From positions 1-28,163 of the IMG/VR virus record IMGVR_UViG_3300044974_000661: a DNA stretch of 28,163 nucleotides. One strand, written 5' to 3'. The notes beneath the pieces were generated by a model. The model saw only the letters and a list, made by a program, of their open reading frames with translations, was not told where the DNA came from and did not search any database. Numbering within the stretch: the stretch's first letter is position 1; each line of letters begins with the position of its first letter. This document shows positions 1 through 13,621 of this stretch, piece by piece. This stretch comes from a virus. Position numbers and translations under genes: made by a program.

Positions 1-274
1 ACCGTTCTTCCCACCATTCTTCCCACCGTTCTTCCCATTCTTCCCACCGTTCTTCCCACCATTCTTCCCACCGTTCTTCCCACCGTTCTTCCCATTCTTC
101 CCACCGTTCTTCCCATTCTTCCCACCGTTCTTCCCACCATACTTCCCGTTCTTCCCATTCTTCCCACCGTTCTTCCCACCATGGTTCCCATTCTTCCCAT
201 TCTTCCCACCGTTCTTCCCACCATGGTTCCCATTCTTCCCATTCTTCCCACCATTCTTCCCACCATTCTTCCCA
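1..274. repeat. Tandem 12-bp and 9-bp repeat array
   Basis: The array mixes a 12-bp unit (CCACCGTTCTTC or CCACCATTCTTC) with a 9-bp unit (CCATTCTTC). All lengths are multiples of three, so coding phase is never lost. A few units carry TGGTTC or TACTTC in place of TTCTTC. It is markedly richer in C than its surroundings and extends beyond the left edge. It behaves as coding tandem repeats prone to slippage. Confidence 0.9.
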
Positions 275-322
275 AGTTTTGGTCCATGGTTCCCATACTT
301 TGCTGGACTTAGAGTATATTAA
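2..322 (+). CDS. C-terminal part of a Pro/Phe-rich (PPFF)n repeat protein (5' end outside window)
   Basis: This frame is open from the window edge to TAA at 320-322, giving about 106 visible residues. From codon 1 to about codon 91 it is an uninterrupted array of PPFF and PFF units. The tail is non-repetitive and ends SFGPWFPYFAGLRVY. Three things favour this frame over the other five. The common CCA/CCG difference is silent here. The rarer unit variants replace Phe only by Trp (182, 224) or Tyr (140), keeping an aromatic residue. A + strand hairpin terminator follows directly. Every Phe codon inside the array is TTC although the surrounding genome is AT-rich. No function is recognised. The position in a phage structural region suggests a virion or fibre-associated protein, but that is inference. 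The other frames of the repeat are also open, so the frame choice is likely rather than certain. Confidence 0.6.
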   Translation, partial: PFFPPFFPPFFPFFPPFFPPFFPPFFPPFFPFFPPFFPFFPPFFPPYFPFFPFFPPFFPPWFPFFPFFPPFFPPWFPFFPFFPPFFPPFFPSFGPWFPYFAGLRVY

Positions 323-330
323 AATATAAA

Positions 331-371
331 ATAAAAAAATAGGGGCTAGAAATAGCCCTTATTTTTTTTAT
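331..371 (+). terminator. Intrinsic terminator after the repeat-protein gene
   Basis: The stem AGGGGCTA / TAGCCCTT (341-348 with 353-360) closes on a GAAA tetraloop. It is extended by a run of A residues before it and a run of eight T residues after it (362-369). The A/T flanks also pair, so it could terminate in both directions. It separates the repeat-protein gene from the oxygenase block. Confidence 0.9.
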
Positions 372-428: not shown

Positions 429-1154
429 ATGGAATGGTATGATTTACCAAGAGAAGAAAAAATAAACAAAAGACTTGAAGATAGTTTTGTAGATCAAAAT
501 ACTAAAGCAATTAATTTAGAATATGGAATACAGCTTTATAAAAATGCTATTTCAAAAGAAGAATGCAAAAAAATTATAGATTTAATAGAAGGTGAAGTAG
601 CAAAAAATTTACCTAAATTAGCATGGAATGGTGCCCACGTAAATGGGCCAGCGGAACATGGTTTAAAGGGCGCTCCAGTAGGACATGCAAGAAATTGTTA
701 CGATATAAAATTTAAAAAAGAAGCGCTTGGTTCATTTTACCCAAAAACAAAAGAATTGGAAACAGCATATGATTTAGTTGATCAGGGATTAACTAAGTGT
801 GTAAAGCATTACGAAAAAATATGGAATATTGGAATATCTTATAAAGAAGCATTTAATTTTGTTAAGTATTTACCTGGGGAGTATTTCAAAATTCATACAG
901 ATCATGGTCCTTACTATACATGCACATTATCTGCTGTAATATATTTAAACGACGACTATGTTGGCGGAGAATTAGATTTTACAAGGCATAATATAACATT
1001 AAAGCCAGATGCTGGGGACATAATATTGTTTCCATCAAATTTTGTATATGAACATGCGTCTTTAAACGTAAGTTCTGGAACAAAATATTCGGTTGTTGTA
1101 ATGATGGATTATAACGATAGATTCCATTCTGATGGAATTGGGGTTAATTATTAA
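429..1154 (+). CDS. 2-oxoglutarate/Fe(II)-dependent dioxygenase 1 (P4H-like)
   Basis: This 241-residue protein has the double-stranded beta-helix signature of the prolyl-4-hydroxylase-like 2OG-Fe(II) oxygenases. Fe(II) ligands appear as H156-x-D158 (IHTDHG) and H209. K219, ten residues later, fits the Lys that binds the 2-oxoglutarate C5 carboxylate in collagen P4H. The segment YLNDDYVGGELDF between them is a typical core strand. Such enzymes couple decarboxylation of 2-oxoglutarate to hydroxylation of a substrate; the substrate here is unknown. The N-terminal ~130 residues carry no recognised extra domain. The start is supported by a good Shine-Dalgarno at 416-421. It is the first gene of the block and is clearly related to the product of 1911-2591. 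No signal peptide is seen, so it should act in the host cytoplasm. Confidence 0.88.
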   Translation: MEWYDLPREEKINKRLEDSFVDQNTKAINLEYGIQLYKNAISKEECKKIIDLIEGEVAKNLPKLAWNGAHVNGPAEHGLKGAPVGHARNCYDIKFKKEALGSFYPKTKELETAYDLVDQGLTKCVKHYEKIWNIGISYKEAFNFVKYLPGEYFKIHTDHGPYYTCTLSAVIYLNDDYVGGELDFTRHNITLKPDAGDIILFPSNFVYEHASLNVSSGTKYSVVVMMDYNDRFHSDGIGVNY

Positions 1155-1914
1155 TAAAATAATTTTTAGGCCATATAAACCATGGCTTAATAAAAACAGT
1201 CTTTCTGCCCCATCAACAACACAGTCAGTAATGCCAGAATGGTATAAAACCGCAGATCGTTTTGCTAAAGCTCCCAATGGAGAATATTTTAAAGCTACAA
1301 AAGCGCATTGTCCAGTAACAAAAGAAGGAACAAAAGACGATTATGGCAAAATACCTACTTGGAAAGCCTGTCCAGCTATTATGGACGGATTCGCTACTGG
1401 ATATGTTTTAAAAACTCCAACAGATATTACATTTTATAAAAATTCAATGGGAAAGATAGATGTAAAGGTTGCTGATCAAAGACATAAAGATTTTATTCAA
1501 AACAGAATGCCTATGCCTCAATTTGAACATCCAAAGGGTTACTACAAAGAACACTTTGCTTGGTGGTCTCCTTGGTCTTTTGGAGTTCCAGAAGGATATA
1601 GCGCTTTATTTATGACTCCAATGAATAGATTTGATTTGCCTTTTATAAATACTACAGGCATAGTAGACAGTGATAGTGTTACAGAAATGGGCACATTACC
1701 ATTTTTTATAATAGAAGGATGGGAAGGCACATTGCCAGAAGGTACACCCTTTGTTCAAATATTACCATTTAAAAGAGAAGATTGGGAAAGTTCGATAGAT
1801 CAGATTTCACCTAATGAGATGATGCGTAGACAAGTAGAAAATTCTGCAAAGTATAGACAGCCCGACGGTGGTGTATATATAAAAAATGTATGGAGTAGGA
1901 GAGAGTATAAATGA
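1132..1914 (+). CDS. Conserved hypothetical protein, distantly DUF6065-like
   Basis: Not assigned with certainty; 260 residues if it starts at ATG 1132, which overlaps the upstream oxygenase gene by 23 nt and has no Shine-Dalgarno. TTG 1138 or a start further in is possible; protein-like sequence begins around the FRPYKPW segment. The C-terminal half has the same skeleton as the DUF6065 protein at 2591-3346. There is a Cys-Pro followed by a hydrophobic segment (CPAIMDGFATGY), a proline-rich middle strand ending TTGIVDSD, and a late GTPFVQILPFKRE strand that matches the AGTPVATFIPI strand of the other. Its stop overlaps the next ATG by four nt (ATGA). Being sandwiched between two paralogous oxygenases suggests it works with them, for example in handling their substrate or product; this is inference. 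Confidence 0.6.
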   Translation: MELGLIINKIIFRPYKPWLNKNSLSAPSTTQSVMPEWYKTADRFAKAPNGEYFKATKAHCPVTKEGTKDDYGKIPTWKACPAIMDGFATGYVLKTPTDITFYKNSMGKIDVKVADQRHKDFIQNRMPMPQFEHPKGYYKEHFAWWSPWSFGVPEGYSALFMTPMNRFDLPFINTTGIVDSDSVTEMGTLPFFIIEGWEGTLPEGTPFVQILPFKREDWESSIDQISPNEMMRRQVENSAKYRQPDGGVYIKNVWSRREYK

Positions 1915-2591
1915 TACCAAATAATTTGCAAAAAACTTGGTCAAGCAAAGAGCAGCTTGGTCCTGGAATTGTTGTTTATAGAGATGTTATAAAGCCAGAA
2001 ATAGATGTAATCAATAGGTTGGAATCTCTACTGGCACCAGTAAATTCTGGTAAAAAATTTGCATGGCAACCAGCATATGTTGGTTATCAGCAGCTAATGC
2101 CAGACTATAGAGACTGTAATGATTTTAAATTTAAAAAAACTGATATAGAGCATGATAAAACTGAAGAGTCTTTAAAGCTACAAGAGCTATGGCAAGACGT
2201 TTATGACGTTCAGTCTCCAGCAGTCGATGACTATAGAAGAAGTTTTAATTTAATGGAATTAAAGTATTGGGAAGCGTTTAACTTTATTAAATATGGTCCA
2301 GGGCAACATTTTATGGAGCACCATGATCATGGATATTCTTATAATTGTACAGTGTCATTAGTTGCATATGTTAATGACGATTATGATGGAGGAGAGTTAT
2401 ATTTTAGACTTCAAAATTTAAATATTAAACCTAAAGCTGGAGATCTTTATATATTCCCATCTAACTTTATGTATCCACATCAAGCAAAGCCAGTTCAGTC
2501 TGGAATTAAATATTCAATAGTTACAATGTTAGATTATAGTAAAAAATTCCATACTCCAGAAATGTATGACCCTAAGTGGGATAATGAATAA
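1911..2591 (+). CDS. 2-oxoglutarate/Fe(II)-dependent dioxygenase 2 (P4H-like)
   Basis: 226 residues. The active site reads H137-x-D139 (EHHDHG), H190 and K200, the same spacing and the same Lys choice as dioxygenase 1. The two share long blocks, such as EAFNF(V/I)KY.PG before the HxD, NDDY.GGEL in the core, and FPSNF.Y.H around the distal His. They are therefore paralogs from a duplication within the phage lineage, though diverged enough to have different substrates. The start overlaps the preceding gene as ATGA, with a purine-rich GGAGAGAG ahead of it. The stop overlaps the next ATG by one base, indicating translational coupling. The substrate is unknown. Confidence 0.88.
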   Translation: MIPNNLQKTWSSKEQLGPGIVVYRDVIKPEIDVINRLESLLAPVNSGKKFAWQPAYVGYQQLMPDYRDCNDFKFKKTDIEHDKTEESLKLQELWQDVYDVQSPAVDDYRRSFNLMELKYWEAFNFIKYGPGQHFMEHHDHGYSYNCTVSLVAYVNDDYDGGELYFRLQNLNIKPKAGDLYIFPSNFMYPHQAKPVQSGIKYSIVTMLDYSKKFHTPEMYDPKWDNE

Positions 2592-3346
2592 TGCATGTAA
2601 AAGCTTATAAGAATCCTGCAACAAGGGTTAAGATAGAGCAGACTAATGTAAGAAGAGATTGGATGGATAATACTGCAGCAGCACATGCATATAAATGTTT
2701 TCCAGTCACGTTAGCAAATACCGTAGGATGGTCAGTGTCATTTTTAGATGATATAGAATTTATCTGGGATGGAATTTCTGAAGCTCAAGATTCTCATGTA
2801 AAAATAATTAAAGATCCAGGTAATGTATGCAGTACATCAAGAGCAAATGCAACAATTAGTTTTTATACTGGGATATTCTTTGAAACAGACGAAAATACAA
2901 CAATGTTACAAATTGTTCCCCCAAACTATTTTATAGATGGAGCAACTCCATTTACAAGTTTAATTTCTACATCATTTTTTAATGATGCTATTCCCGTCGC
3001 CTGGATGATTACAAGGCCAAATACTGTAATTAAAATTCCTGCAGGAACTCCAGTTGCAACATTTATTCCGATATCTATTAAGAAATTAAATGAAATTGAA
3101 TTAACTATTGAAGATATGATTTTTTCAGATGATTTTTATAAAAGAAGACAAGAAAAGGCAATTGTCTGGGAAGAAAAAAGTAAAGATGGGTTTACTAATT
3201 TTTATAGAGATGCAGTAGAATATGACGGAACTAAATTAGGGGAGCATGAGGCTAAATCTATAAGACTTAAAATAAATGATTTATCTACCCCACCAACTAC
3301 ACTATCATCCGATAGACCAAAATCTCATGCTAATCCAGGGAAATGA
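2591..3346 (+). CDS. DUF6065 family protein
   Basis: 251 residues that fit my memory of the DUF6065 family. Recognisable elements are RRDWMDNT near residue 20, a Cys-Phe-Pro followed by LANTVGW (residues ~36-48), WDG near residue 57, TGIFFET in the middle, VPPNYFIDGATPF, and AWMITRPN followed by AGTPVATFIPI near the C-terminal third. The biochemical role of the family is not known to me. Members occur beside 2OG-Fe(II) oxygenases, as here, which suggests a shared pathway. The start codon overlaps the stop of dioxygenase 2 (TAATG). A C-terminal Ser/Pro/Thr-rich tail of about 25 residues looks disordered. No membrane segment or signal peptide. Confidence 0.72.
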   Translation: MHVKAYKNPATRVKIEQTNVRRDWMDNTAAAHAYKCFPVTLANTVGWSVSFLDDIEFIWDGISEAQDSHVKIIKDPGNVCSTSRANATISFYTGIFFETDENTTMLQIVPPNYFIDGATPFTSLISTSFFNDAIPVAWMITRPNTVIKIPAGTPVATFIPISIKKLNEIELTIEDMIFSDDFYKRRQEKAIVWEEKSKDGFTNFYRDAVEYDGTKLGEHEAKSIRLKINDLSTPPTTLSSDRPKSHANPGK

Positions 3347-3352
3347 TATAAT
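3344..3352 (+). promoter_or_regulatory. Extended -10 box, probable leaderless promoter for 3359
   Basis: TGATATAAT (TG at 3344-3345, TATAAT 3347-3352) ends six nt before the ATG at 3359. No Shine-Dalgarno lies before that ATG, and no clear -35 box is present. Transcription would start at or next to the ATG. Confidence 0.5.
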
Positions 3353-3358
3353 ATAAAT

Positions 3359-4117
3359 ATGGAAAATATGAATGTAAATCATTTAGAAAAAATAAAGGGG
3401 TCTATTACTCCTTCAGGATTTTTTGGAACCAGTAAAGATATGATAGTCGAGCTAGAAAACTTTATGACTGAAGAAGAAATAGATTTTCTAGAAAGCTCAG
3501 CAAAAAATATTACAATATGGGATATTACAGAAAGTCATGTAAATGAAAATGGAACAACCATATATGACGCAAATTATTGGAAAGACCGTGTTGCGACTAG
3601 ACCTTCTTTAGACAAGAATGACCCAAAAATAGGGCCAGTCATAGATGGTTTATTTCAAAAGCTTCAGCCAATTATAGAAAATTTTTATAAAGTAAAAGTT
3701 CAACCTACAGGACAAACAATTGTAAGATGGCTCCCTGGTCAGTTTCAAAAACCTCATGCTGATAAGGAATTGCATGATGGTCCAGATGCTGGGCTACCAA
3801 ATGATTTCCCTTACTACGACATAGCAAGTTTGTTCTATCTAAATGATGATTACGAAGGTGGAGAGATATATTGGCCGTTACAAGGCGTTAGGATTAAACC
3901 TAAAAGAGGAGCAGCTTATTTTTTCCCAGGAGATATGAATTATATTCATGGAGTAACTGAAATAAAAGGTAATATAAGATACACGGTCCCATTCTTTTGG
4001 ACTATATTAGAGCATACTGGAAACAATAAGCCAGATTTAAATAAAGAATACTATAGAACGCTTTTAGACCCAGAGATGCGTGGTAAAAATCTTTATGAGA
4101 GCGTTTATGAGGAGTAA
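3359..4117 (+). CDS. 2-oxoglutarate/Fe(II)-dependent dioxygenase 3 (P4H-like)
   Basis: 252 residues. Fe(II) ligands are seen as H133-x-D135 (PHADKE) and H197 (YIHGV). R207 takes the 2-oxoglutarate-binding position ten residues after the distal His. The core strand FYLNDDYEGGEIYW is typical of the family. It belongs to a different branch from dioxygenases 1 and 2: Arg replaces Lys and there is a longer insertion after the HxD. Unlike its neighbours it has a short intergenic gap ahead and a -10 box just upstream, so it may begin its own, leaderless transcript. ATG 3368 is an alternative start nine nt in. Its substrate is not indicated. Confidence 0.87.
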   Translation: MENMNVNHLEKIKGSITPSGFFGTSKDMIVELENFMTEEEIDFLESSAKNITIWDITESHVNENGTTIYDANYWKDRVATRPSLDKNDPKIGPVIDGLFQKLQPIIENFYKVKVQPTGQTIVRWLPGQFQKPHADKELHDGPDAGLPNDFPYYDIASLFYLNDDYEGGEIYWPLQGVRIKPKRGAAYFFPGDMNYIHGVTEIKGNIRYTVPFFWTILEHTGNNKPDLNKEYYRTLLDPEMRGKNLYESVYEE

Positions 4118-4120
4118 TAT

Positions 4121-4864
4121 ATGAGCAAATATAAAAGATTAACAGATGACATATTGGTATACGAAAACTTTTTAACTAAAGAAGAGTGTGATGCCATAAT
4201 TAACATATTAGAAACTCAAGTAAAAAGGGACAAGCTTTCATGGACCCCGATTACTTTTTATGAATCATATTCTTCTGTTTTGCCTAAAGATAATGATGAA
4301 GAATTAGAAGAGTTTGGATTAAGCCCTACATTCTTTTCTGACTTACAAACAAGAATTATAGAAACGGTTGCTGAAGTTCATGGAAAAGATCCAAAAGAAA
4401 TTTTTAAAATTGGATTTCACGCACAAAAATGGGAGCCTGGCGCCTATGCTAGAGAGCATTCAGACAACACTGATTTAGAAGGGAATACAGGTCCATTTGA
4501 AAGAAGTAGATATGCTTCGTTTTTATATTTAAATGATGATTTTGCTGGAGGGCTATTAAAGTTTAATAAGCAGAACCAAGAGCTACTGCCACAGACTGGA
4601 ATGGTTGCCTCATTTGCTGGAGGTTTTACAAATACTCATGAGGTTACTTTAATAGAAAGCGGCATAAGATATACACTAGGTTCTTTCTGGGACGATAGAG
4701 ATGAGTCTGCATATGGGCAAGAAAAAATAGATGAGTGGGCAGAAGAAATGAAAAAAATTAGAGAGCAGCAGGAAGTAGTAAAATCTGACTGGCAAGAAAC
4801 CTTAAAAGAAGGTTATAAATTAGATCCAGATGGTAACAAATATAAAATAGAGGAGAAAGCGTAA
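4121..4864 (+). CDS. 2-oxoglutarate/Fe(II)-dependent dioxygenase 4 (P4H-like)
   Basis: 247 residues. The active-site set is H113-x-D115 (REHSDN), H173 (NTHEVT) and R183. The core strand FLYLNDDFAGGLLKF is diagnostic of the P4H-like fold. The N-terminus (LVYENFLTKEECDAII) is the usual short helix that precedes the jelly roll in these proteins. The C-terminal ~50 residues are highly charged and probably helical. The start is fixed by AGGAG (4110-4114) six nt upstream, and the gene begins three nt after the previous stop. It overlaps the next ATG by one base. The substrate is unknown. Confidence 0.88.
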   Translation: MSKYKRLTDDILVYENFLTKEECDAIINILETQVKRDKLSWTPITFYESYSSVLPKDNDEELEEFGLSPTFFSDLQTRIIETVAEVHGKDPKEIFKIGFHAQKWEPGAYAREHSDNTDLEGNTGPFERSRYASFLYLNDDFAGGLLKFNKQNQELLPQTGMVASFAGGFTNTHEVTLIESGIRYTLGSFWDDRDESAYGQEKIDEWAEEMKKIREQQEVVKSDWQETLKEGYKLDPDGNKYKIEEKA

Positions 4865-5628
4865 TGAAACTAGAAGAAAAATTACATGAAAATGTTTACA
4901 TGTATTCAGATGTAATCGAGAATCCTCAAGAAATTCTTGATTTAATCAATAAGCTAGATGCAGATGATAGAGTAACTAAAGTAATTCCAAAATGGAATAA
5001 CTGGAACTCTAGCAGCAGAGATGGAAATATCTTTGGTAAAAAGAAAGATTTTAATTTAGCTGAAGTAGAAAGCTTAGACCCAGAAGTAAGAAAAGATGTT
5101 GATTTGATTATCTCAACAATAAGAAATGCAATTAAAAATATAGCTGAAGCTTTTATTGTAGATAGAGGCCTAAAGGGTGAGCCAAACATTTCGCCTTTTG
5201 TTGGTATATCAAAATATATTCCAGGTTGTGCTATGGGTGCTCATTTCGATAGACAGGCTGGAGATAATAGCTTAGAGTGGTCAATAATTATATATTGGAA
5301 TGATAATTATGAAGGTGGAGAAATTTCTTTTGTTATTAGGCCAGAAGATTTAAGACTAGAAGTCAATGGACACTTAAGGCCACCTGATGATGCATTAGAC
5401 CCAAGAACAAAGGATATGGTTACATTTACAGCAAAGCCAAAAGCTGGAAGCGCATTAATTTTCCCGTCTACAGATCCTTATAAGCATCAGGTTCATATAA
5501 TGAAAGAGGGAGAAAAGTATATAACCCCTGGATTTATATTTGTTGACGGATACGTTGTTGGTGGCCCAGGAGGTCCTACTGAGGAGTACATCAAGGCTTA
5601 TCATGAGCAAATGCAAGGCATGATGTAA
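4864..5628 (+). CDS. 2-oxoglutarate/Fe(II)-dependent dioxygenase 5 (P4H-like)
   Basis: 254 residues with H127-x-D129 (AHFDRQ), H208 (YKHQVH) and K218 as Fe(II) and 2-oxoglutarate ligands. The core strand IIYWNDNYEGGEISF is followed by an insertion of about 30 residues (RPEDLRLEV to DPRTKD) before the KPKAGSALIFP strand. This longer loop could shape a distinct substrate pocket. The start overlaps the previous stop (TAATG) and is preceded by GAGGAG at 4850-4855, so translation is coupled. A Gly/Pro-rich segment (VVGGPGGPT) precedes the C-terminal helix. The substrate is unknown. Confidence 0.87.
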   Translation: MKLEEKLHENVYMYSDVIENPQEILDLINKLDADDRVTKVIPKWNNWNSSSRDGNIFGKKKDFNLAEVESLDPEVRKDVDLIISTIRNAIKNIAEAFIVDRGLKGEPNISPFVGISKYIPGCAMGAHFDRQAGDNSLEWSIIIYWNDNYEGGEISFVIRPEDLRLEVNGHLRPPDDALDPRTKDMVTFTAKPKAGSALIFPSTDPYKHQVHIMKEGEKYITPGFIFVDGYVVGGPGGPTEEYIKAYHEQMQGMM

Positions 5629-5637
5629 TGCTGCTTA

Positions 5638-6219
5638 ATGAAAATAAATAAAATCTTTAACGGTATAATAGAAATTGAAGATTTTGTTTCTAAAGATGAA
5701 CAAGATTCCATATTGTCCTTTGCGAATTCTATTCCAGAGGACATATGGTTTAAAGAAGACAATAACATAGATTATGATTGGTGGAATGGCAAAGTAATTC
5801 CATCACCAAAATCTTTTACTGATTTAAATGTGCTAAGCAGCCTAGAAAAAAGAGTTATTAATTTATTTAATAATCAGCTAGAAGTGACGGGTATTAATTT
5901 AAATAGGTATAAAAATAATGATTTTTTAAACTATCATACAGATGAATGGATAAATAATCCGAAGCATTTTGTAAGGTATGGAGTAATAATTTATTATAAT
6001 GATAATTACGAGGGTGGAGAATTACATTATAAGGATTTAGAAATAATATATAGGCCAAAAGCAGGATCTTTAATATTACATGAAGGGCATATGCTTCATG
6101 GAACTTTACCAGTTAAAAGTAATTCAGTAAGATATTCTTCAACATTTTTTGTTAAAGAATTAAGAGGAAAAAATATTTCTTTAAATAAAGAAATATTTGG
6201 AGATACAGATGGATTATAG
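5638..6219 (+). CDS. 2-oxoglutarate/Fe(II)-dependent dioxygenase 6 (compact, P4H-like)
   Basis: 193 residues, the shortest of the six and close to a minimal double-stranded beta-helix. Fe(II) ligands are H100-x-D102 (YHTDEW) and H154 (MLHGTL). R165 lies eleven residues after the distal His, where the other five have ten. The core strand IIYYNDNYEGGELHY is intact. The ribosome binding site is weak. The gene begins nine nt after the preceding stop and overlaps the start of the methyltransferase-like gene that follows, which suggests the two are expressed together. Confidence 0.86.
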   Translation: MKINKIFNGIIEIEDFVSKDEQDSILSFANSIPEDIWFKEDNNIDYDWWNGKVIPSPKSFTDLNVLSSLEKRVINLFNNQLEVTGINLNRYKNNDFLNYHTDEWINNPKHFVRYGVIIYYNDNYEGGELHYKDLEIIYRPKAGSLILHEGHMLHGTLPVKSNSVRYSSTFFVKELRGKNISLNKEIFGDTDGL

Positions 6220-6796
6220 AGGCAATAGCGGTCAAGAAAAATTTGTACTTGATTTGCTTAAAAATAAAACAAACGGATATTATGTAGAATTAGGCGCATT
6301 TCATTCCAAAGACGGTAGTAATACTTATTATCTAGAAAACGATTATAACTGGAACGGAGTCTCTTTTGAAATTGATTTAGATAGACATAAAGAATTTACA
6401 GATAACAGAAAAAATCCTTGCATACTAGGGGATGCAACTCATTTTAACTATTTATCATATTTTGAAGAAAACAATTTTCCAAAACAGATAGACTATTTAC
6501 AAGTCGACATAGACGCTGGCTACACTCCAGAAGGTAATGCCGTAGGTAATCCATATTTAACATTACACGGCTTACTGTCTGTTCCTTTAAGTAAATATAG
6601 ATATTCAATTATAACTTTTGAACATGATGCTCAAATTGAATATAATAATAAAGGAATGCGTGAAGCACAAAGAGAAATTCTTTCATCCCTAGGTTATAAG
6701 CTGGTAGTTAGAGATTGGCATGAAGATTGGTGGGTTGATCCAAACACTATACCGTATTTGGATTATAGAGAAAAATTTAGAATGAGTTGGACTTAA
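6209..6796 (+). CDS. FkbM-like SAM-dependent methyltransferase
   Basis: 195 residues. The N-terminal GQEKFVLDLL segment leads into the SAM-binding strand YYVELGAFHSKDG, a variant of the VDVGA(N)xG motif of FkbM-type methyltransferases. This is followed by an acidic strand end (GVSFEIDLD), a GDAT segment, and the late motif IDYLQVDIDAGY that matches the DxLKxDxE region of the family. FkbM enzymes usually O-methylate sugars or natural products; the acceptor here is unknown. ATG 6209 is chosen because GGAG at 6199-6202 lies six nt upstream; a TTG at 6197 is the longer alternative. It overlaps dioxygenase 6 by 11 nt, so it probably belongs to the same modification pathway. Confidence 0.72.
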   Translation: MDYRGNSGQEKFVLDLLKNKTNGYYVELGAFHSKDGSNTYYLENDYNWNGVSFEIDLDRHKEFTDNRKNPCILGDATHFNYLSYFEENNFPKQIDYLQVDIDAGYTPEGNAVGNPYLTLHGLLSVPLSKYRYSIITFEHDAQIEYNNKGMREAQREILSSLGYKLVVRDWHEDWWVDPNTIPYLDYREKFRMSWT

Positions 6797-6797
6797 T

Positions 6798-7262
6798 ATG
6801 AGCGGTCAATTAAAACCTCAGCATTCAGATATAGTTTCTGAATATTTAAATAGTGTTAATGAAAAAAAAGCTAATGCCTACATGTTAACTATTTCCAGAG
6901 ATGGTGAAGATCCAGTAAGAACGATTATTTTTTATAATAATGCCATCGAGGCAGCAGAAGCGTATAATATGTATAACGATTGGGGTTTTGCAAAACAGTA
7001 TCTTACAATCACACTTTATGAGCCATCTGGAGTGGTAAATAAAAAAGTTTTTAAAAGAAATCAGGCAGGAGATCCTACCTTTTTAAGACAAAATTATTAT
7101 GATATTTCTGATGTTTTAAAATCATTAAAAACAAAAGTAGATTACAATACTTTTGAAGAAGCCTGTAAAGCAGTAGCAAAATCATTTGCAAAAGATAACT
7201 GGAGGTTTAGCCCAGAAAGGTTTTTAGAAGATCTTGGCATTGACAGCACACTAGAGGTATAA
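6798..7262 (+). CDS. Hypothetical protein, 154 residues
   Basis: Family not recognised. The protein looks globular and soluble. It has an N-terminal helix, a beta-rich middle (YMLTISRDGEDP, then TIIFYNNAIEAAEAYNMYND), a strand ending LTITLYEPSGVV, and an acidic helical C-terminus (SPERFLEDLG). No catalytic motif, signal peptide or membrane segment is seen. It starts one base after the methyltransferase stop and is the last gene before an internal promoter. Its place suggests membership of the accessory block, but not a function. Confidence 0.75.
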   Translation: MSGQLKPQHSDIVSEYLNSVNEKKANAYMLTISRDGEDPVRTIIFYNNAIEAAEAYNMYNDWGFAKQYLTITLYEPSGVVNKKVFKRNQAGDPTFLRQNYYDISDVLKSLKTKVDYNTFEEACKAVAKSFAKDNWRFSPERFLEDLGIDSTLEV

Positions 7263-7269: not shown

Positions 7270-7452
7270 ATGGGTAAAAGACATTTTGCAGAAATGTATA
7301 AAAATAGATCTCAGCATAGGCATGACCAAGAATCTGACTGGTCGATGTTTGAAAAAGACATGGAAATTTTAACAGGAATGCTATACACAGTAGCTTCTAT
7401 ACCATTAAAACCTTTTATGCCAATAATTAATAAGGTAAAAAGAAAAAAATAA
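7270..7452 (+). CDS. Small hypothetical protein, 60 residues
   Basis: Function not recognised. The N-terminal half is basic and hydrophilic (HFAEMYKNRSQHRHD). The C-terminal half has a moderately hydrophobic stretch (LTGMLYTVASIPLKPF) followed by a basic tail (NKVKRKK). It could be a small membrane-associated or nucleic-acid-binding protein; the hydrophobic stretch is short for a full membrane span. Its stop overlaps the ATG of the LamG gene (TAATG), so it may serve to couple translation into that gene. Confidence 0.6.
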   Translation: MGKRHFAEMYKNRSQHRHDQESDWSMFEKDMEILTGMLYTVASIPLKPFMPIINKVKRKK

Positions 7453-9194
7453 TGTCGTACTATTATTCTGTTATAAAAGATTCTCCAATCGGGCTATGGA
7501 GACTAGACGAAACTTCAGGATCTGTAGTATACGACAGTTCTGGATGTGAAAATAATGGGACATATGTTGGGTCAATAATTAAATCTTCATTTCCTATGAC
7601 CAGCGGCGGCCAACACTCTGTTAAAATAACGTCATCTAATTATATAGATATTGATGTTAATAAAGACCTATATGGTTTGTCTAATAATATTGGATTAATA
7701 TCAAATGGAACCGAAGATAATGATTTTAGTTTTGAGGCATGGTTTCATCCAAAAACTTTAACATCTGAAACTAAAATATTTGCTGAAATTAACGACGTAG
7801 CTGGCATATATTATGACAATGGCAATATTATTTTTAAATTAACTGATAACGAAATTTATTATACAGTGCCAGATCCAAACAGATCCTTACACGTAGTTGG
7901 TACATATACTGTAAACTCAATTAATTTATTTTTAAATGGTGAACTTGTAGCAACAAAAAATGTTAGCATAGGTAGTTTTAATAATACTAATTTGTTGGCG
8001 GTGTCATGTGGACCTGCGTCTGGATCCGAATATTTTATTGCAGATTCGTTGGCCATATACAGATATGCACTTAACCAAGAAAAAATTTTAAACCATTACC
8101 TAGATTCTTTGCCTGGCTCAGAAGTTGATATAGTTAATCCAGACGGTGGAGAATTATTTAAAATAACAGATAGGCATCAAAACATAACAGAGAAGTATAT
8201 TTATCCTGTTCAAAAAAGCTGGGAATATTTTTTAAATGATGACTTGCTTTACAGACAAAAAACTAAAAGTATTTATTTAAACCCATTGTCAGAGTCAGGA
8301 TCTTTTGAAGAAACAATAAGCATAGTATATTGGAAAGATTTTATTTCGTCTAGGATAGAGTGGTCTGCAACCAAAGGGGTTTCTGTATTCGTATCAACAG
8401 ACAGTATTTCTTGGACAGAATGCGAAAATGGCAAACAGCTTCCTGGGTTCTCAGTAGAAAATTTTTCTGAAAATAAAATAGTTTATATTAAAGTTGAATT
8501 TAATTCAAATAATTCAGAAGTATATATTCCAGAGCTTTATTACTTAGGAATAGATTTTTATACTGAAAAGAAAATATTTGCTCATAATAGTCCAGCAAGA
8601 TTATCTACAGACACATTATGGGATATTAATTTTGGTTCAGTGGATAATTCTGTTTTGCATCGTTATCAAAATAACGGTGTAAATACAGACTCGTCTGGGT
8701 TTTATGTAGAAACAGAAATAGATGTAAAGAATGTTGAATTTATATTAGATCCAACTTCAATAACAAATGGGTATTTAATTTATAATAAAAATAATGATAA
8801 TGAATTTAGTATTCAAATTGGATCGGCAGGGCAAATAACTAAAACAAATATTTCTAACATTTATGTAAACGGCAATGATATTTCTTCAGAAACAAATATA
8901 TCCTCTCATATTTATCTTAATGAGCCAAATTATATTTTGATAAAATCCTCTGGCACCATGTCTGGTCAAATATGGTTAAATGCAAAAGTAGACGGTGCAA
9001 TAAAATCTGGAATTCTTGGAAACAATTTATATAATAACATTGCTTTATATGCCAAAGAGACAATAGATCATTATATGCATTATCAAATGTATATTGGAAA
9101 ATATACTGTTTCAGCATCGGATTCATCAATAGAGTTGACAGAAAAAACGATTAAGACCTATTCTAGAGACAGAATACTGCTAAATAACCTTTAG
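7452..9194 (+). CDS. LamG/concanavalin A-like domain protein, probable virion adhesin or fibre
   Basis: 580 residues. Residues ~8-210 form a LamG-type jelly roll. It opens with SPIGLWRLDETSGSVVYDSS, followed by NNGTYVG, the strand FSFEAWFHP, and LHVVGTYTVNSINLFLNGEL. It closes with FIADSLAIYRYALNQEKI, the usual final strand and helix. This fold is common in phage fibres and surface-binding proteins and often binds glycans. The remaining ~370 residues are beta-rich, with strand-like repeats and no enzymatic motif, and might include a second jelly roll near residues 390-570. It lies just upstream of the portal region, outside the usual tail-tip location. The start overlaps the previous stop. 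A tail, head-fibre or decoration role is inferred. Confidence 0.75.
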   Translation: MSYYYSVIKDSPIGLWRLDETSGSVVYDSSGCENNGTYVGSIIKSSFPMTSGGQHSVKITSSNYIDIDVNKDLYGLSNNIGLISNGTEDNDFSFEAWFHPKTLTSETKIFAEINDVAGIYYDNGNIIFKLTDNEIYYTVPDPNRSLHVVGTYTVNSINLFLNGELVATKNVSIGSFNNTNLLAVSCGPASGSEYFIADSLAIYRYALNQEKILNHYLDSLPGSEVDIVNPDGGELFKITDRHQNITEKYIYPVQKSWEYFLNDDLLYRQKTKSIYLNPLSESGSFEETISIVYWKDFISSRIEWSATKGVSVFVSTDSISWTECENGKQLPGFSVENFSENKIVYIKVEFNSNNSEVYIPELYYLGIDFYTEKKIFAHNSPARLSTDTLWDINFGSVDNSVLHRYQNNGVNTDSSGFYVETEIDVKNVEFILDPTSITNGYLIYNKNNDNEFSIQIGSAGQITKTNISNIYVNGNDISSETNISSHIYLNEPNYILIKSSGTMSGQIWLNAKVDGAIKSGILGNNLYNNIALYAKETIDHYMHYQMYIGKYTVSASDSSIELTEKTIKTYSRDRILLNNL

Positions 9195-9255: not shown

Positions 9256-9594
9256 ATGGAAATTAAAAAACTTGGATCAAAAATAAAGACTGGCGAGACC
9301 AGGCTTGGAGTTTATGTTTGGGAAATGCCAGACGGTAGGTGGATAGGAGACGATGAAAATAATTTCTTGTCTATTGCATCTATGAATGGAGACCTTTCTA
9401 GAATAGAATTGCTTGCCAAGGCAGTAAGAAGTTATGGGATTGAAGAAGGTAAGCCAAAGTTTCTTGAGGGTAGTAGGCAGATAGACGATGAAGAGTTTCA
9501 GCGTCAAAAAACAAGACTTGCTTTAGGCTTGGTTCCAGATGAATTAGATATTGGCGTATACAAAGATGAAATGAAAAAGTGGAGCAAAAAATGA
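9256..9594 (+). CDS. Conserved small pre-portal protein
   Basis: 112 residues, with a short beta-rich N-terminus (GVYVWEMPDGRWIGDDENN) followed by helices. The pattern resembles small genes that sit just upstream of the portal gene in actinobacteriophages, carrying a WxMPDG(R)xxxDD motif, a SYGIEEG segment and a late GLVPDE. I know no established function. Its stop overlaps the portal ATG (ATGA), so it belongs to the head operon. The start codon has no Shine-Dalgarno and follows a -10-like box, which suggests leaderless initiation. Confidence 0.7.
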   Translation: MEIKKLGSKIKTGETRLGVYVWEMPDGRWIGDDENNFLSIASMNGDLSRIELLAKAVRSYGIEEGKPKFLEGSRQIDDEEFQRQKTRLALGLVPDELDIGVYKDEMKKWSKK

Positions 9595-11171
9595 TTCAGT
9601 ATGAAGAAGATGTCCCAGGTCAGGATATAGAAATATCAAATGTTGCTGATTGGATGAAGTTTAATTCACCATCTATAAGTAATAACCAAGATCCATTTTC
9701 GATTGAAGGCGAAGAAATACTCAAGTTGTCTGGATTAAGCCCAGCTCTTAGAAGAAAAGTAAGCAGAGATGTACAAAAAAGATTTTCAGGAACAGACGGT
9801 ACGGGGACACAGCAACTACTAATTCAGCAAGCCGTTAGCGGGTATGCTATGTTTGATCTTGTAATGCCAGAATACAACCTAGATTATTTATCTACTATAT
9901 ATGAAATATCTCCATACAACTATGCAGCAATAAATGCAAAGGTTGCAAATATTGTTGGTTTAGGTTTTGATTTTGTAGAAACAAAAAAAACAAATGACTT
10001 ACTAGATGGAATTGAAGATGAAAAACAGCTAGAACGTGCTCGTAGAAAGCTCTCTAGAATTAAACAAGATTTACATGAATGGCTTGAGGACTGCAACGAA
10101 GAAGAAACATTTAAAGAAACATTGATAAAGTTTTATACAGATGTAGAAGCAACAGGAAACGGCTACCTTGAGATAGGTAGAACAACTGCTGGTAAAATTG
10201 GTTATATAGGTCATATACCATCTAAGACTATGCGTGTAAGGCGGTTAAGGGATGGGTTTGTTCAGTTACTTTATGGAAAAGCTGTATTCTTCCGTAATTT
10301 TGGAGATCAAAAAACACAAAATCCAATTGCTGGTGCAACAGATAGACCTAATGAAATCATACATCTTAAAAAGTATACTCCAAAAAATAATTATTATGGA
10401 ATTCCAGATATCATAGCAGCACAAAATGCCATGGCTGGAAATGAATTTGCTGGCAAATATAACTTAGACTATTTTGAAAATAAAGCGGTTCCTAGATATA
10501 TTATTACCGTAAAGGGAGCTAAATTATCTCCAGAGTCTGAGCGCAAGCTGTTGGAATTTTTCCAGGTAGGACTCCGTGGTAAAAACCATAGGTCTCTATA
10601 TATTCCACTACCGCCAGATTCCCCAGATTCTAAAACAGAATTTAAAATGGAACCGATTGAAGCGGGCACTCAAGAATCTTCATTCAATATATATCGTCAA
10701 TCAAATAGAGACGAAATATTAATGGCCCATAGAGTACCAATTAATAAAATTGGAACACCAGCAGGTATTAATTTAGCCGCAGCTAGGGATGCAGATAAAA
10801 CATTTAAAGAACAAGTTTGTGCCCCAGCACAAGATATTTTAGAAAAGAAATTAAATAGAATTATGATGGAAATGACAGATGCCCTTCAGCTTAAGTTTAA
10901 TGAATTAAGCTTAACTGATTCTGACACTCAATCTAAGATAGACGAAAGATATTTGAGATTCCAGGTAATTACCCCTAATGAAATTAGATTAAGAATGGGC
11001 CTAGTCCCACGTGAAGGTGGCGATGTGCCAGTTGATTTGCAGGCTCAGGCTGCAGAAATTAAAGCTCAAGCCATGCAAAGCAGAACAAGGGACCAGGAAA
11101 GATCTTCAAATTCTCCAGATAACTCTGGGGAGGGTAGAAATGCCAAGGGCGACGGAAGACAAGTTGAGTAG
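9591..11171 (+). CDS. Portal protein
   Basis: 526 residues, in the usual size range for portals of the PBSX/HK97-like type. The region SPYNYAAINAKVANIVGLGF (residues ~105-125) is the conserved N-terminal helix. It is followed by GNGYLEIGR, the clip/stem region with YGIPDIIAAQNAMAGNE, and the C-terminal signature MAHRVPINKIG with FKEQVCAPAQDILEKKLN. The last ~40 residues are Ser/Asn/Gly-rich and probably disordered. Twelve copies would form the DNA-entry vertex to which terminase and connector bind. ATG 9591 is preferred over the in-frame GTG 9579 because GGAG (9581-9584) lies six nt ahead and the ATG overlaps the previous stop. Confidence 0.92.
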   Translation: MIQYEEDVPGQDIEISNVADWMKFNSPSISNNQDPFSIEGEEILKLSGLSPALRRKVSRDVQKRFSGTDGTGTQQLLIQQAVSGYAMFDLVMPEYNLDYLSTIYEISPYNYAAINAKVANIVGLGFDFVETKKTNDLLDGIEDEKQLERARRKLSRIKQDLHEWLEDCNEEETFKETLIKFYTDVEATGNGYLEIGRTTAGKIGYIGHIPSKTMRVRRLRDGFVQLLYGKAVFFRNFGDQKTQNPIAGATDRPNEIIHLKKYTPKNNYYGIPDIIAAQNAMAGNEFAGKYNLDYFENKAVPRYIITVKGAKLSPESERKLLEFFQVGLRGKNHRSLYIPLPPDSPDSKTEFKMEPIEAGTQESSFNIYRQSNRDEILMAHRVPINKIGTPAGINLAAARDADKTFKEQVCAPAQDILEKKLNRIMMEMTDALQLKFNELSLTDSDTQSKIDERYLRFQVITPNEIRLRMGLVPREGGDVPVDLQAQAAEIKAQAMQSRTRDQERSSNSPDNSGEGRNAKGDGRQVE

Positions 11172-12586: not shown

Positions 12587-13621
12587 ATGAGTAATGAACT
12601 ATTAGCTAAAGCAGCAGCAGCCGATACTACCATGACAGGTAGCATGGTTGGAGCAGCAGATCCCACCGACGGTATCCATGTTGGATCCGAAGGTAAAGGT
12701 GGTCTCCTAAATCCAGAGCAGTCTGCACGATTCCTCGATTACATGTTCGATGCAACAGTAGTCGGTAAATTAGCACGTACAGTTCGCATGCGAGCTGATA
12801 CTACTGAGATTGATCGTATTGGCGTAGGCGAGAAGCTTATGAAGCTTGCTTCAGAAGCAGAGAATACTGGCACAAATGCTGCAGTACAATTCTCAAAGAT
12901 CTCTCTTACAACAAAGAAGCTACGTCTTGATTGGGAACTTTCAACAGAGTCTCTAGAAGACAATATCGAAGGTGCCGATCTCGAAGATCACATTGCACGT
13001 CTGATGGCAACACAGGCAGGTAACGATCTTGAAGATGTAGTTCTTAATGGTGATACATCTCTCTCATCTGACAATCTATACAAGGCCTTTGATGGTATTG
13101 TAAAGATTGCTAAGGCAAACGGTCACGTTGTTGACGCCGATGGCGCTAACATCTCCCGTGAAGTCTTCAATAATGCCCTAAAGGCACTCCCAAGAAAGTA
13201 CAAGCAGCGTCGTCCAGACCTTCGCTTCCTTTCTGGTTCTAATCTAATCCAAGATTACTTATATTCTACTTCTCAGAATATATCAAACGTTAACCCACAA
13301 GATATTGCAGCAAGCATTATCCGTGGCGAGACAGCAGGTCTTGGTGGTCCAGCAGGCTTCACAGCCCCATTTGCATTCGGTATTCCGATTGTTGAAGTTC
13401 CTTTGCTTAAGGAAACTCAGGGCGCTGATGGTGATCAGGGCGATATCCACTTGACATTCCCAAATAACGTTGTTATTGGTATCAAGCGTGATGTTACCGT
13501 GTACCGCTTCTTCTGGCCTAAGAAAGACTCAATCGAATATACAATGTATACTCGTGTTGGAGCTCAAATTGAACAAGCAGATGCTTGGGTCGTTGTTAAG
13601 AACGTTAAGGTTGCTTCCTAA
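12587..13621 (+). CDS. Major capsid protein (HK97 fold)
   Basis: 344 residues, in the usual range. HK97-like features include an N-terminal arm ending in GGLLNPEQSARFLDYMFDA, the VVGKLARTVRM strand, the spine helix region with LEDHIARLMATQAGNDLEDV, NGDTS, and a C-terminal strand set (NVVIGIKRDVTVYRFFWPKK). Its place between protease and connector supports the call. Codon use differs sharply from its neighbours: almost all Arg codons are CGT/CGC/CGA rather than AGA, and CTT/CTC are frequent. This fits selection for very high expression. A purine-rich AAGGTAGGTG lies about 11 nt before the ATG. A hairpin terminator follows the stop. Confidence 0.92.
   Translation: MSNELLAKAAAADTTMTGSMVGAADPTDGIHVGSEGKGGLLNPEQSARFLDYMFDATVVGKLARTVRMRADTTEIDRIGVGEKLMKLASEAENTGTNAAVQFSKISLTTKKLRLDWELSTESLEDNIEGADLEDHIARLMATQAGNDLEDVVLNGDTSLSSDNLYKAFDGIVKIAKANGHVVDADGANISREVFNNALKALPRKYKQRRPDLRFLSGSNLIQDYLYSTSQNISNVNPQDIAASIIRGETAGLGGPAGFTAPFAFGIPIVEVPLLKETQGADGDQGDIHLTFPNNVVIGIKRDVTVYRFFWPKKDSIEYTMYTRVGAQIEQADAWVVVKNVKVAS

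What the first reader, a model, noticed from the sequence alone, without database searches (positions are those of the whole stretch)
429..6219. Array of six distinct 2OG-Fe(II) dioxygenases in a phage virion region
Six separate genes within 5.8 kb each keep the full HxD...H...K/R set, so none looks decayed. They are diverged in length, loops and 2-oxoglutarate-binding residue, suggesting six substrates or positions rather than dosage. Single P4H-like oxygenases are common in phages; six in a row next to structural genes is unusual. They may act in sequence on a virion protein, a host surface glycan or a peptide.
Basis: partly seen in the sequence, partly recalled or inferred. Interest (0 to 1): 0.78.

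Follow-up and report, generated by a model that had tools for sequence, protein, structure and literature searches.

The report
Phage hydroxylase array beside proline-rich fibre
A freshwater phage carries six different proline-hydroxylase-like enzymes right behind a tail-region gene made of proline-phenylalanine repeats, and this pairing recurs in unrelated phages, which suggests that phages chemically harden or decorate their own fibres much as plants and animals do with collagen-like proteins.

Summary
Six PF13640-type 2OG-Fe(II) oxygenase genes lie at 429-6219, each with an intact HxD...H...K/R set. They are not strictly 'in a row': two DUF6065-family genes interleave (order O-a-O-b-O-O-O-O). 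The array is not an oddity of this contig: the order is conserved in dozens of related contigs and active-site residues are kept in 98% or more of 624 homologues. The phage is an aquatic relative of Streptomyces Stanwilliamsviridae with a probably actinobacterial host (whiB). The main new result lies outside the given coordinates. The gene directly upstream, truncated here at 2-322, is the C-terminus of an Fn3 protein ending in a (PFFPPFFP)n tract, downstream of tail-fibre genes. IMG/VR contigs picked only by a PFFPPFFP DNA pattern carry 2OG oxygenases in 48 of 50 cases, mostly 5-12 each. Collagen-like-fibre contigs do so in 2 of 50. The pairing spans different capsid lineages and two contractile-tailed phages. 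A predicted structure of one array enzyme matches prolyl hydroxylases best, led by algal P4H with a (Ser-Pro)5 peptide. Best explanation: a dedicated maturation cassette that hydroxylates a proline/aromatic-rich tail fibre. Linkage, conservation and fold are shown; substrate and chemistry are inferred. No biochemistry exists.

The parts
2..322 (+). C-terminal 106 residues of a tail-region protein ending in a (PFFPPFFP)n tract (40% Pro, 47% Phe), cut by the contig end; candidate substrate of the array
   Evidence: Frame fixed by relatives L087/L090/L093/L095, where the tract follows an Fn3 domain in the same ORF (PF00041 E 1.3e-10); composition
333..368 (+). Terminator-like hairpin followed by T run, between the repeat protein and the array
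   Evidence: MFE -19.5 kcal/mol, z -4.4; function not shown
429..1154 (+). 2OG-Fe(II) oxygenase 1 (P4H type)
   Evidence: PF13640 46 bits; HTD/H/K
1132..1914 (+). DUF6065-family protein a, not an oxygenase; start codon uncertain
   Evidence: phrog_7084 E 5.1e-34; no Pfam match
1911..2591 (+). 2OG-Fe(II) oxygenase 2 (P4H type)
   Evidence: PF13640 55 bits; HHD/H/K; AF2 model pLDDT 89 matching prolyl hydroxylases, Z up to 19.9
2591..3346 (+). DUF6065 protein b; predicted dUTPase-like (beta-clip) fold without dUTPase motifs
   Evidence: PF19541 E 3.7e-33; model pLDDT 85
3359..4117 (+). 2OG-Fe(II) oxygenase 3
   Evidence: PF13640 31 bits; HAD/H/R
4121..4864 (+). 2OG-Fe(II) oxygenase 4
   Evidence: PF13640 29.5 bits; HSD/H/R
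4864..5628 (+). 2OG-Fe(II) oxygenase 5, with a long insert between the core strands
   Evidence: PF13640 38.1 bits; HFD/H/K
5638..6219 (+). 2OG-Fe(II) oxygenase 6 (shortest; most divergent between close relatives)
   Evidence: PF13640 40.2 bits; HTD/H/R; 44% identity to L087 counterpart
6197..6796 (+). FkbM-like methyltransferase, tentative
   Evidence: PF05050 only sub-threshold (E 0.03-0.1 in 5 of 11 homologues); present only in some arrays
6798..7262 (+). Conserved protein of unknown function, frequent in the arrays
   Evidence: no family match
7452..9194 (+). phrog_11584 protein upstream of the portal gene (right-hand flank of the slot)
   Evidence: E 1e-26
9579..11171 (+). Portal protein
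   Evidence: phrog_12 E 4.8e-56; 57-60% to Streptomyces phages
12587..13621 (+). Major capsid protein
   Evidence: phrog_1623 E 1.2e-91; 58-63% to Stanwilliamsviridae

Best explanation
The array is a virion-maturation cassette. The phage makes a tail-region protein whose C-terminus is a long rod of Pro-Phe-Phe-Pro repeats (in relatives FF-x-PP-G/S or TPFGF repeats). The clustered P4H-type oxygenases use O2, 2-oxoglutarate and Fe(II) to hydroxylate prolines, and perhaps neighbouring side chains, at different positions or with different regiochemistry along it. The hydroxyl groups would stiffen the rod or serve as handles for later steps, such as the FkbM-like methyltransferase here or the SDR and glycosyltransferase genes found in the same slot of relatives. 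DUF6065 proteins are non-oxygenase partners, possibly substrate-holding factors. Shown: intact enzymes, conserved order, purifying selection, prolyl-hydroxylase-like predicted fold (one enzyme), and strong genomic linkage to Pro/aromatic-repeat proteins across phage lineages. Inferred: the substrate, the chemistry, the division of labour and the effect on the virion.
For: Repeat protein directly upstream in relatives, order PFF-O-a-O-b-O(n). Blind test: 48/50 records picked by a PFFPPFFP DNA pattern carry PF13640, mostly 5-12 copies, against 2/50 for collagen-like GPTGPTG records; 2OG density 33.6 against 0.6 per 100 kb, and 51 of 60 PFF genes with a downstream 2OG have it within 1.5 kb. Only 10/50 share the window's capsid type and 9/50 a distant one; G052 and G066 are contractile-tailed (tail sheath) and still carry PFF-2OG-DUF6065. 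In G135 the array is ~10 kb away from its usual neighbour yet stays beside its FFxPP protein. Repeat-free members G017 and G139 lack 2OG. Predicted fold: listed matches are essentially all prolyl hydroxylases, top algal P4H with (Ser-Pro)5, Z 19.9; profile nearest B. anthracis P4H, E 4e-11. Active sites kept; dN/dS 0.03-0.16 for most array genes. Cultured cyanophage S-SCSM1 has 2OG genes interleaved with tail-fibre genes, one fibre with Arg/Pro/aromatic-rich repeats.
Against: No biochemistry or proteomics. Contigs are fragments and phylogenetically non-independent; habitat could confound the comparison. PFFP is not a known P4H motif, and fold does not set the substrate. The repeat protein has not been shown to be in virions. 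One 36.8-kb record (G041) has a PFF protein but no 2OG, and several have only 1-2. A terminator-like hairpin separates the repeat gene from the array.
Confidence: 0.62

Rival explanations
1. The oxygenases modify other virion or tail-fibre proteins (Fn3 domains, Mtd-type fibres, distal tail proteins) or free peptides; adjacency to the repeat protein reflects a shared tail-fibre locus only.
For: The locus also holds Mtd_N-type fibre genes and distal tail proteins with Fn3, Listeria-Bacteroides and TSP1-like repeats.
Against: Collagen-like-fibre contigs do not carry 2OG arrays. G017 keeps Mtd-like fibre genes but has no repeat protein and no 2OG. In G135 the array travels with the FFxPP gene.
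Confidence: 0.17
2. They act on host molecules: surface glycan or peptide tailoring, or prolyl hydroxylation of a host protein such as EF-Tu.
For: Foldseek's top hit is the Pseudomonas P4H-EF-Tu complex (PPHD acts on EF-Tu, PMC4543633). Glycosyltransferases and an FkbM-like gene occur in the slot.
Against: Six diverged enzymes for one host target is hard to explain; copies track a phage-encoded repeat protein rather than hosts or capsid lineage.
Confidence: 0.1
3. Metabolic role: consumption of 2-oxoglutarate to manipulate host nitrogen signalling, as proposed for cyanophages.
For: Published proposal for multi-2OG cyanophages (PMC3037559).
Against: One active enzyme would do; six diverged orthologue groups and location among late tail and capsid genes argue otherwise. 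That proposal concerns NtcA of cyanobacteria, whereas this phage group carries whiB (8/8 contigs of at least 85 kb).
Confidence: 0.04
4. DNA base hypermodification (TET/JBP-like) followed by glycosylation.
For: Weak PF12851 similarity for genes 3 and 6 (14.5 and 20.6 bits); glycosyltransferases in some relatives.
Against: Below the PF12851 cut-off (34.9); structural and profile neighbours are prolyl hydroxylases.
Confidence: 0.02

Closest known systems
Algal P4H (Cr-P4H type I, PDB 3gze/2jig) and collagen-type P4Hs (B. anthracis P4H 5hv0, PBCV-1 vCPH 5c5t)
   Same: Same double-stranded beta-helix core and HxD/H/K-R site; best structural and profile neighbours; act on proline-rich repetitive proteins (established knowledge)
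   Different: About 14-20% identity; encoded as 5-12 diverged copies by a tailed phage next to a PFFP repeat rather than S-P or P-P-G repeats; activity untested
Multiple 2OG-Fe(II) oxygenases of T4-like cyanophages (PMC3037559; Synechococcus phage S-SCSM1)
   Same: 2-5 copies per genome in the published table; in S-SCSM1 2OG genes are interleaved with tail-fibre genes
   Different: About 33% identity at best; window-type DUF6065 protein b has no GenBank phage match; different host group; published role proposed as 2OG metabolism
Streptomyces phages of Stanwilliamsviridae (Faust, StarPlatinum)
   Same: Capsid 58-63%, portal 57-60% identity and similar order from the phrog_11584 position to the tape measure
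   Different: No PF13640 gene and no PFF/FFxPP tract in the two genomes tested; glycosyltransferase, RNR and endolysin genes occupy the region upstream
Virion-glycosylation loci of actinobacteriophages (recalled, not tested)
   Same: Tail-proximal modifying enzymes
   Different: Hydroxylases rather than glycosyltransferases dominate here

Membership tests
2OG-Fe(II) oxygenase, P4H type (PF13640) | Profile match above gathering score | tested here: met
   All six, 29.5-55 bits against 27
2OG-Fe(II) oxygenase, P4H type (PF13640) | HxD...H iron triad and K/R for 2OG | tested here: met
   All six; kept in homologues
2OG-Fe(II) oxygenase, P4H type (PF13640) | DSBH fold like prolyl hydroxylases | tested here: met
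   Model of gene 2 only, pLDDT 89, Z 19.9 to 3gze
Prolyl hydroxylase (activity) | Hydroxylation of peptidyl proline | not testable with these tools
   No assay; fold shows no function
TET/JBP DNA dioxygenase (PF12851) | Profile match above gathering score | tested here: not met
   14.5 and 20.6 bits against 34.9
DUF6065 (PF19541) | Profile match, gene 2591-3346 | tested here: met
   115 bits against 26.6
DUF6065 (PF19541) | Profile match, gene 1132-1914 | tested here: inconclusive
   No Pfam match; both genes match phrog_7084
dUTPase | dUTPase fold | tested here: met
   Foldseek E 1e-4; VIA Z 11.2, rmsd about 4 A over about 120 residues
dUTPase | Conserved dUTPase motifs (AGxD, PRSG, GxxDxxYxG, P-loop-like) | tested here: not met
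   0 of 97 and 0 of 91 homologues by regular expression for the four motifs; a looser motif-3 pattern matched 1
FkbM methyltransferase (PF05050) | Profile match above gathering score | tested here: not met
   13.1 bits against 22.7; best E 0.03 among homologues
Stanwilliamsviridae | Shared capsid and portal proteins and gene order | tested here: met
Stanwilliamsviridae | Whole-genome relatedness at family level | not tested
   Window is a fragment

The most novel reading that the evidence does not exclude
Several unrelated phage lineages share a mobile cassette (proline/aromatic-repeat fibre protein plus multiple diverged prolyl-hydroxylase-like oxygenases plus DUF6065) that makes a hydroxyproline-rich, multiply tailored fibre, a bacterial-virus counterpart of collagen or plant extensin, with each enzyme setting a different position of the repeat.
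Probability: 0.5. Interest if true: 0.86.

Novelty: new variant of a known kind. Interest (0 to 1): 0.72.

Why it matters
Phage 2OG oxygenases are abundant in aquatic viromes and their role is unsettled; the published idea is 2-oxoglutarate metabolism. The linkage found here names a specific, phage-encoded candidate substrate and so makes the question directly testable by virion proteomics or by incubating purified enzymes with repeat peptides. If right, post-translational proline hydroxylation of virion fibres would be a common and overlooked feature of freshwater actinobacterial phages and a source of new prolyl hydroxylases with unusual Pro-Phe specificity.

Tried and rejected
Assembly artefact: rejected, because the same order recurs in many contigs. 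Decay: rejected. Recent tandem duplication: rejected, because six separate clades. TET/JBP: rejected at profile level. Collagen-like fibre as the general substrate: rejected as the driver, because GPTGPTG contigs lack 2OG. The array-less MCP loci first looked like counter-examples; L008 turned out to have the array and FFxPP gene further upstream, and L013, L064 and L066 are too short upstream to judge. A PFF pattern scan of bacterial genomes gave almost only single chance matches with no 2OG link. Literature on DUF6065 or phage hydroxyproline fibres: none in the held library. FkbM could not be confirmed by NCBIfam or PDB sequences. The random control pattern (residue order shuffled) had only 16 stretches, 3 with one 2OG each. 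VIA-align is limited to Foldseek's candidates, so absence of other folds is not evidence.
Full report
WHAT IS THERE. The window is a 28,163-bp linear IMG/VR fragment. Six ORFs at 429-1154, 1911-2591, 3359-4117, 4121-4864, 4864-5628 and 5638-6219 each pass the PF13640 gathering score, match phrog_61 and keep HxD...H...K/R. Two further genes inside the interval are not oxygenases: 1132-1914 (phrog_7084) and 2591-3346 (PF19541 DUF6065). The sequence is therefore O-a-O-b-O-O-O-O, followed by a tentative FkbM-like gene (PF05050 only below cut-off), a conserved unknown, and then phrog_11584, portal, protease, capsid, tail and tape-measure genes.

WHOSE GENOME. Capsid and portal proteins are 58-63% and 57-60% identical to Streptomyces phages of Stanwilliamsviridae, with similar gene order from the phrog_11584 position rightward. 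The two reference genomes tested have no PF13640 gene. WhiB, which a paper on isolated freshwater actinophages calls a key indicator for actinophages (PMC10202952), is present in all eight related contigs of 85 kb or more. An actinobacterial host in fresh water is likely but inferred.

IS THE ARRAY REAL AND FUNCTIONAL? Among 35 long related contigs, 30 have 2OG genes, usually 5-10. In loci chosen by capsid protein alone and reaching more than 4 kb beyond the phrog_11584 gene, 24 of 28 carry at least one and 23 at least three; a 25th, L008, has them further upstream. Of 624 complete homologous ORFs nearly all keep every catalytic residue. dN/dS between close relatives is 0.03-0.16 for most array genes (dS is near saturation, so the figures are rough). 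Gene 6 and some middle genes evolve faster (about 0.29-0.34). The six window genes fall into six separate clades, mostly one copy per locus (support 0.87-0.97 except 0.47 for gene 5), so they are old, maintained paralogues.

THE NEIGHBOUR THAT MATTERS. The first 322 bases read PFFPPFFPPFFPFFPP...GPWFPYFAGLRVY* in frame +2. In relatives the same tract is the C-terminus of a protein with a Pfam-significant Fn3 domain, downstream of Mtd_N-type fibre genes. In clades lacking the exact PFFP pattern, the same position holds FFxPP(G/S/R) or TPFGF repeats. Some versions end in an intein/Hint-like domain (PF14890, sub-threshold). A second PFF-bearing protein, about 1,000 residues, lies in the tail region tens of kb away in several genomes. 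The window tract is cut by the contig end, and the strand and frame rest on relatives.

INDEPENDENT TEST. I scanned IMG/VR with a DNA pattern for PFFPPFFP that knows nothing of oxygenases. Of 50 whole records searched, 48 carry PF13640 genes, mostly 5-12. For 50 records picked by a collagen-like GPTGPTG pattern the number is 2, one over the cut-off. Nominal Fisher p is 3e-23, but related contigs are not independent, so the p-value should not be taken literally. At stretch level the densities are 33.6 and 0.6 2OG genes per 100 kb. Only 10 of the 50 have the window's capsid type, 9 a distant one, 31 none detected. G052 and G066 encode tail sheaths and so are contractile-tailed phages, yet carry PFF, 2OG and DUF6065 side by side. 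In G135 a collagen-like fibre and a glycosyltransferase lie between the array and the capsid genes, and the array remains beside its FFxPP gene. G017 (104 kb) and G139 (17 kb covered upstream) have neither; G017 has two weakly matched glycosyltransferase-like genes in the slot. All this ties the oxygenases to the repeat protein rather than to capsid lineage or to fibres in general. Limits: fragments, capped samples, clade and habitat structure, and exceptions such as G041 (PFF protein, no 2OG in 36.8 kb).

WHAT THE ENZYMES LOOK LIKE. An AlphaFold2 model of gene 2 (pLDDT 89) matches prolyl hydroxylases almost exclusively among listed hits: algal P4H with (Ser-Pro)5 at Z 19.9 (rmsd 2.3 over 174 residues), PHD2-HIF complexes at about 19, Pseudomonas P4H-EF-Tu at 18.7. 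The six-sequence profile finds B. anthracis P4H first. TET/JBP is below cut-off. This favours peptidyl proline as substrate but does not prove it. DUF6065 b is predicted to have a dUTPase-like fold but none of the dUTPase motifs tested, so it is filed as a fold resemblance only; DUF6065 a relatives occur in haloarchaeal tailed viruses, in the two checked away from annotated 2OG genes.

MECHANISM AND RIVALS. Most likely the cassette hydroxylates the Pro/aromatic rod at several positions, giving a stiffer or decorated fibre tip for host binding. Other virion substrates, host targets, 2OG consumption and DNA modification are ranked lower for the reasons given. Several enzymes would make sense because the repeat contains several distinct proline contexts, but this division of labour is inference.

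KNOWN OR NEW. Multiple 2OG genes in phages are known (up to five per cyanophage genome, PMC3037559), and S-SCSM1 shows 2OG genes interleaved with tail-fibre genes, one fibre bearing Arg/Pro/aromatic-rich repeats (a single example). I found no report in the held library linking such arrays to a repeat substrate or describing the PFF-2OG-DUF6065 cassette; subscription papers are mostly not held. I rate it a new variant of a known kind, with a testable and potentially broader reading.

Noticed in passing
window 1132-1914 and 2591-3346: DUF6065 has a predicted dUTPase-like fold with no dUTPase motifs; relatives of gene a occur in haloarchaeal tailed viruses (HF2, Halorubrum tailed phage 7), in one of them close to a thymidylate synthase gene.
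   Followed up: partly
L177:3063-6749 and L176:3794-7573: Distal PFF proteins carry thrombospondin-1-like WSxWSxCS...TRTRTC repeats (by eye) or eight Listeria-Bacteroides repeats (PF09479).
   Followed up: no
L168:14574-15887, L106:3-959, L182:7748-9406, L174:12734-14116: Some Fn3-repeat proteins end in an intein/Hint-like domain (PF14890 E 2e-4 for L168, below cut-off), suggesting self-processing.
   Followed up: no
window 2-322: The PFF tract uses TTC 48 times and TTT twice, whereas nine other genes of the window use TTT 170 and TTC 46.
   Followed up: no
L591 2141-3406 (Synechococcus phage S-SCSM1): Short tail fibre with an Arg/Pro/aromatic-rich low-complexity insert lies among several 2OG genes; a cultured system for testing the idea.
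   Followed up: partly
L008, L066, L085 (upstream of the phrog_11584 gene): Collagen-like G-x-y fibres, with a glycosyltransferase gene next to that of L008, occupy the slot in some capsid relatives.
   Followed up: partly
L169:3310-4005: A short-chain dehydrogenase gene (PF00106, E 8e-40) sits in the array of the TPFGF-repeat clade, hinting at oxidation after hydroxylation.
   Followed up: no
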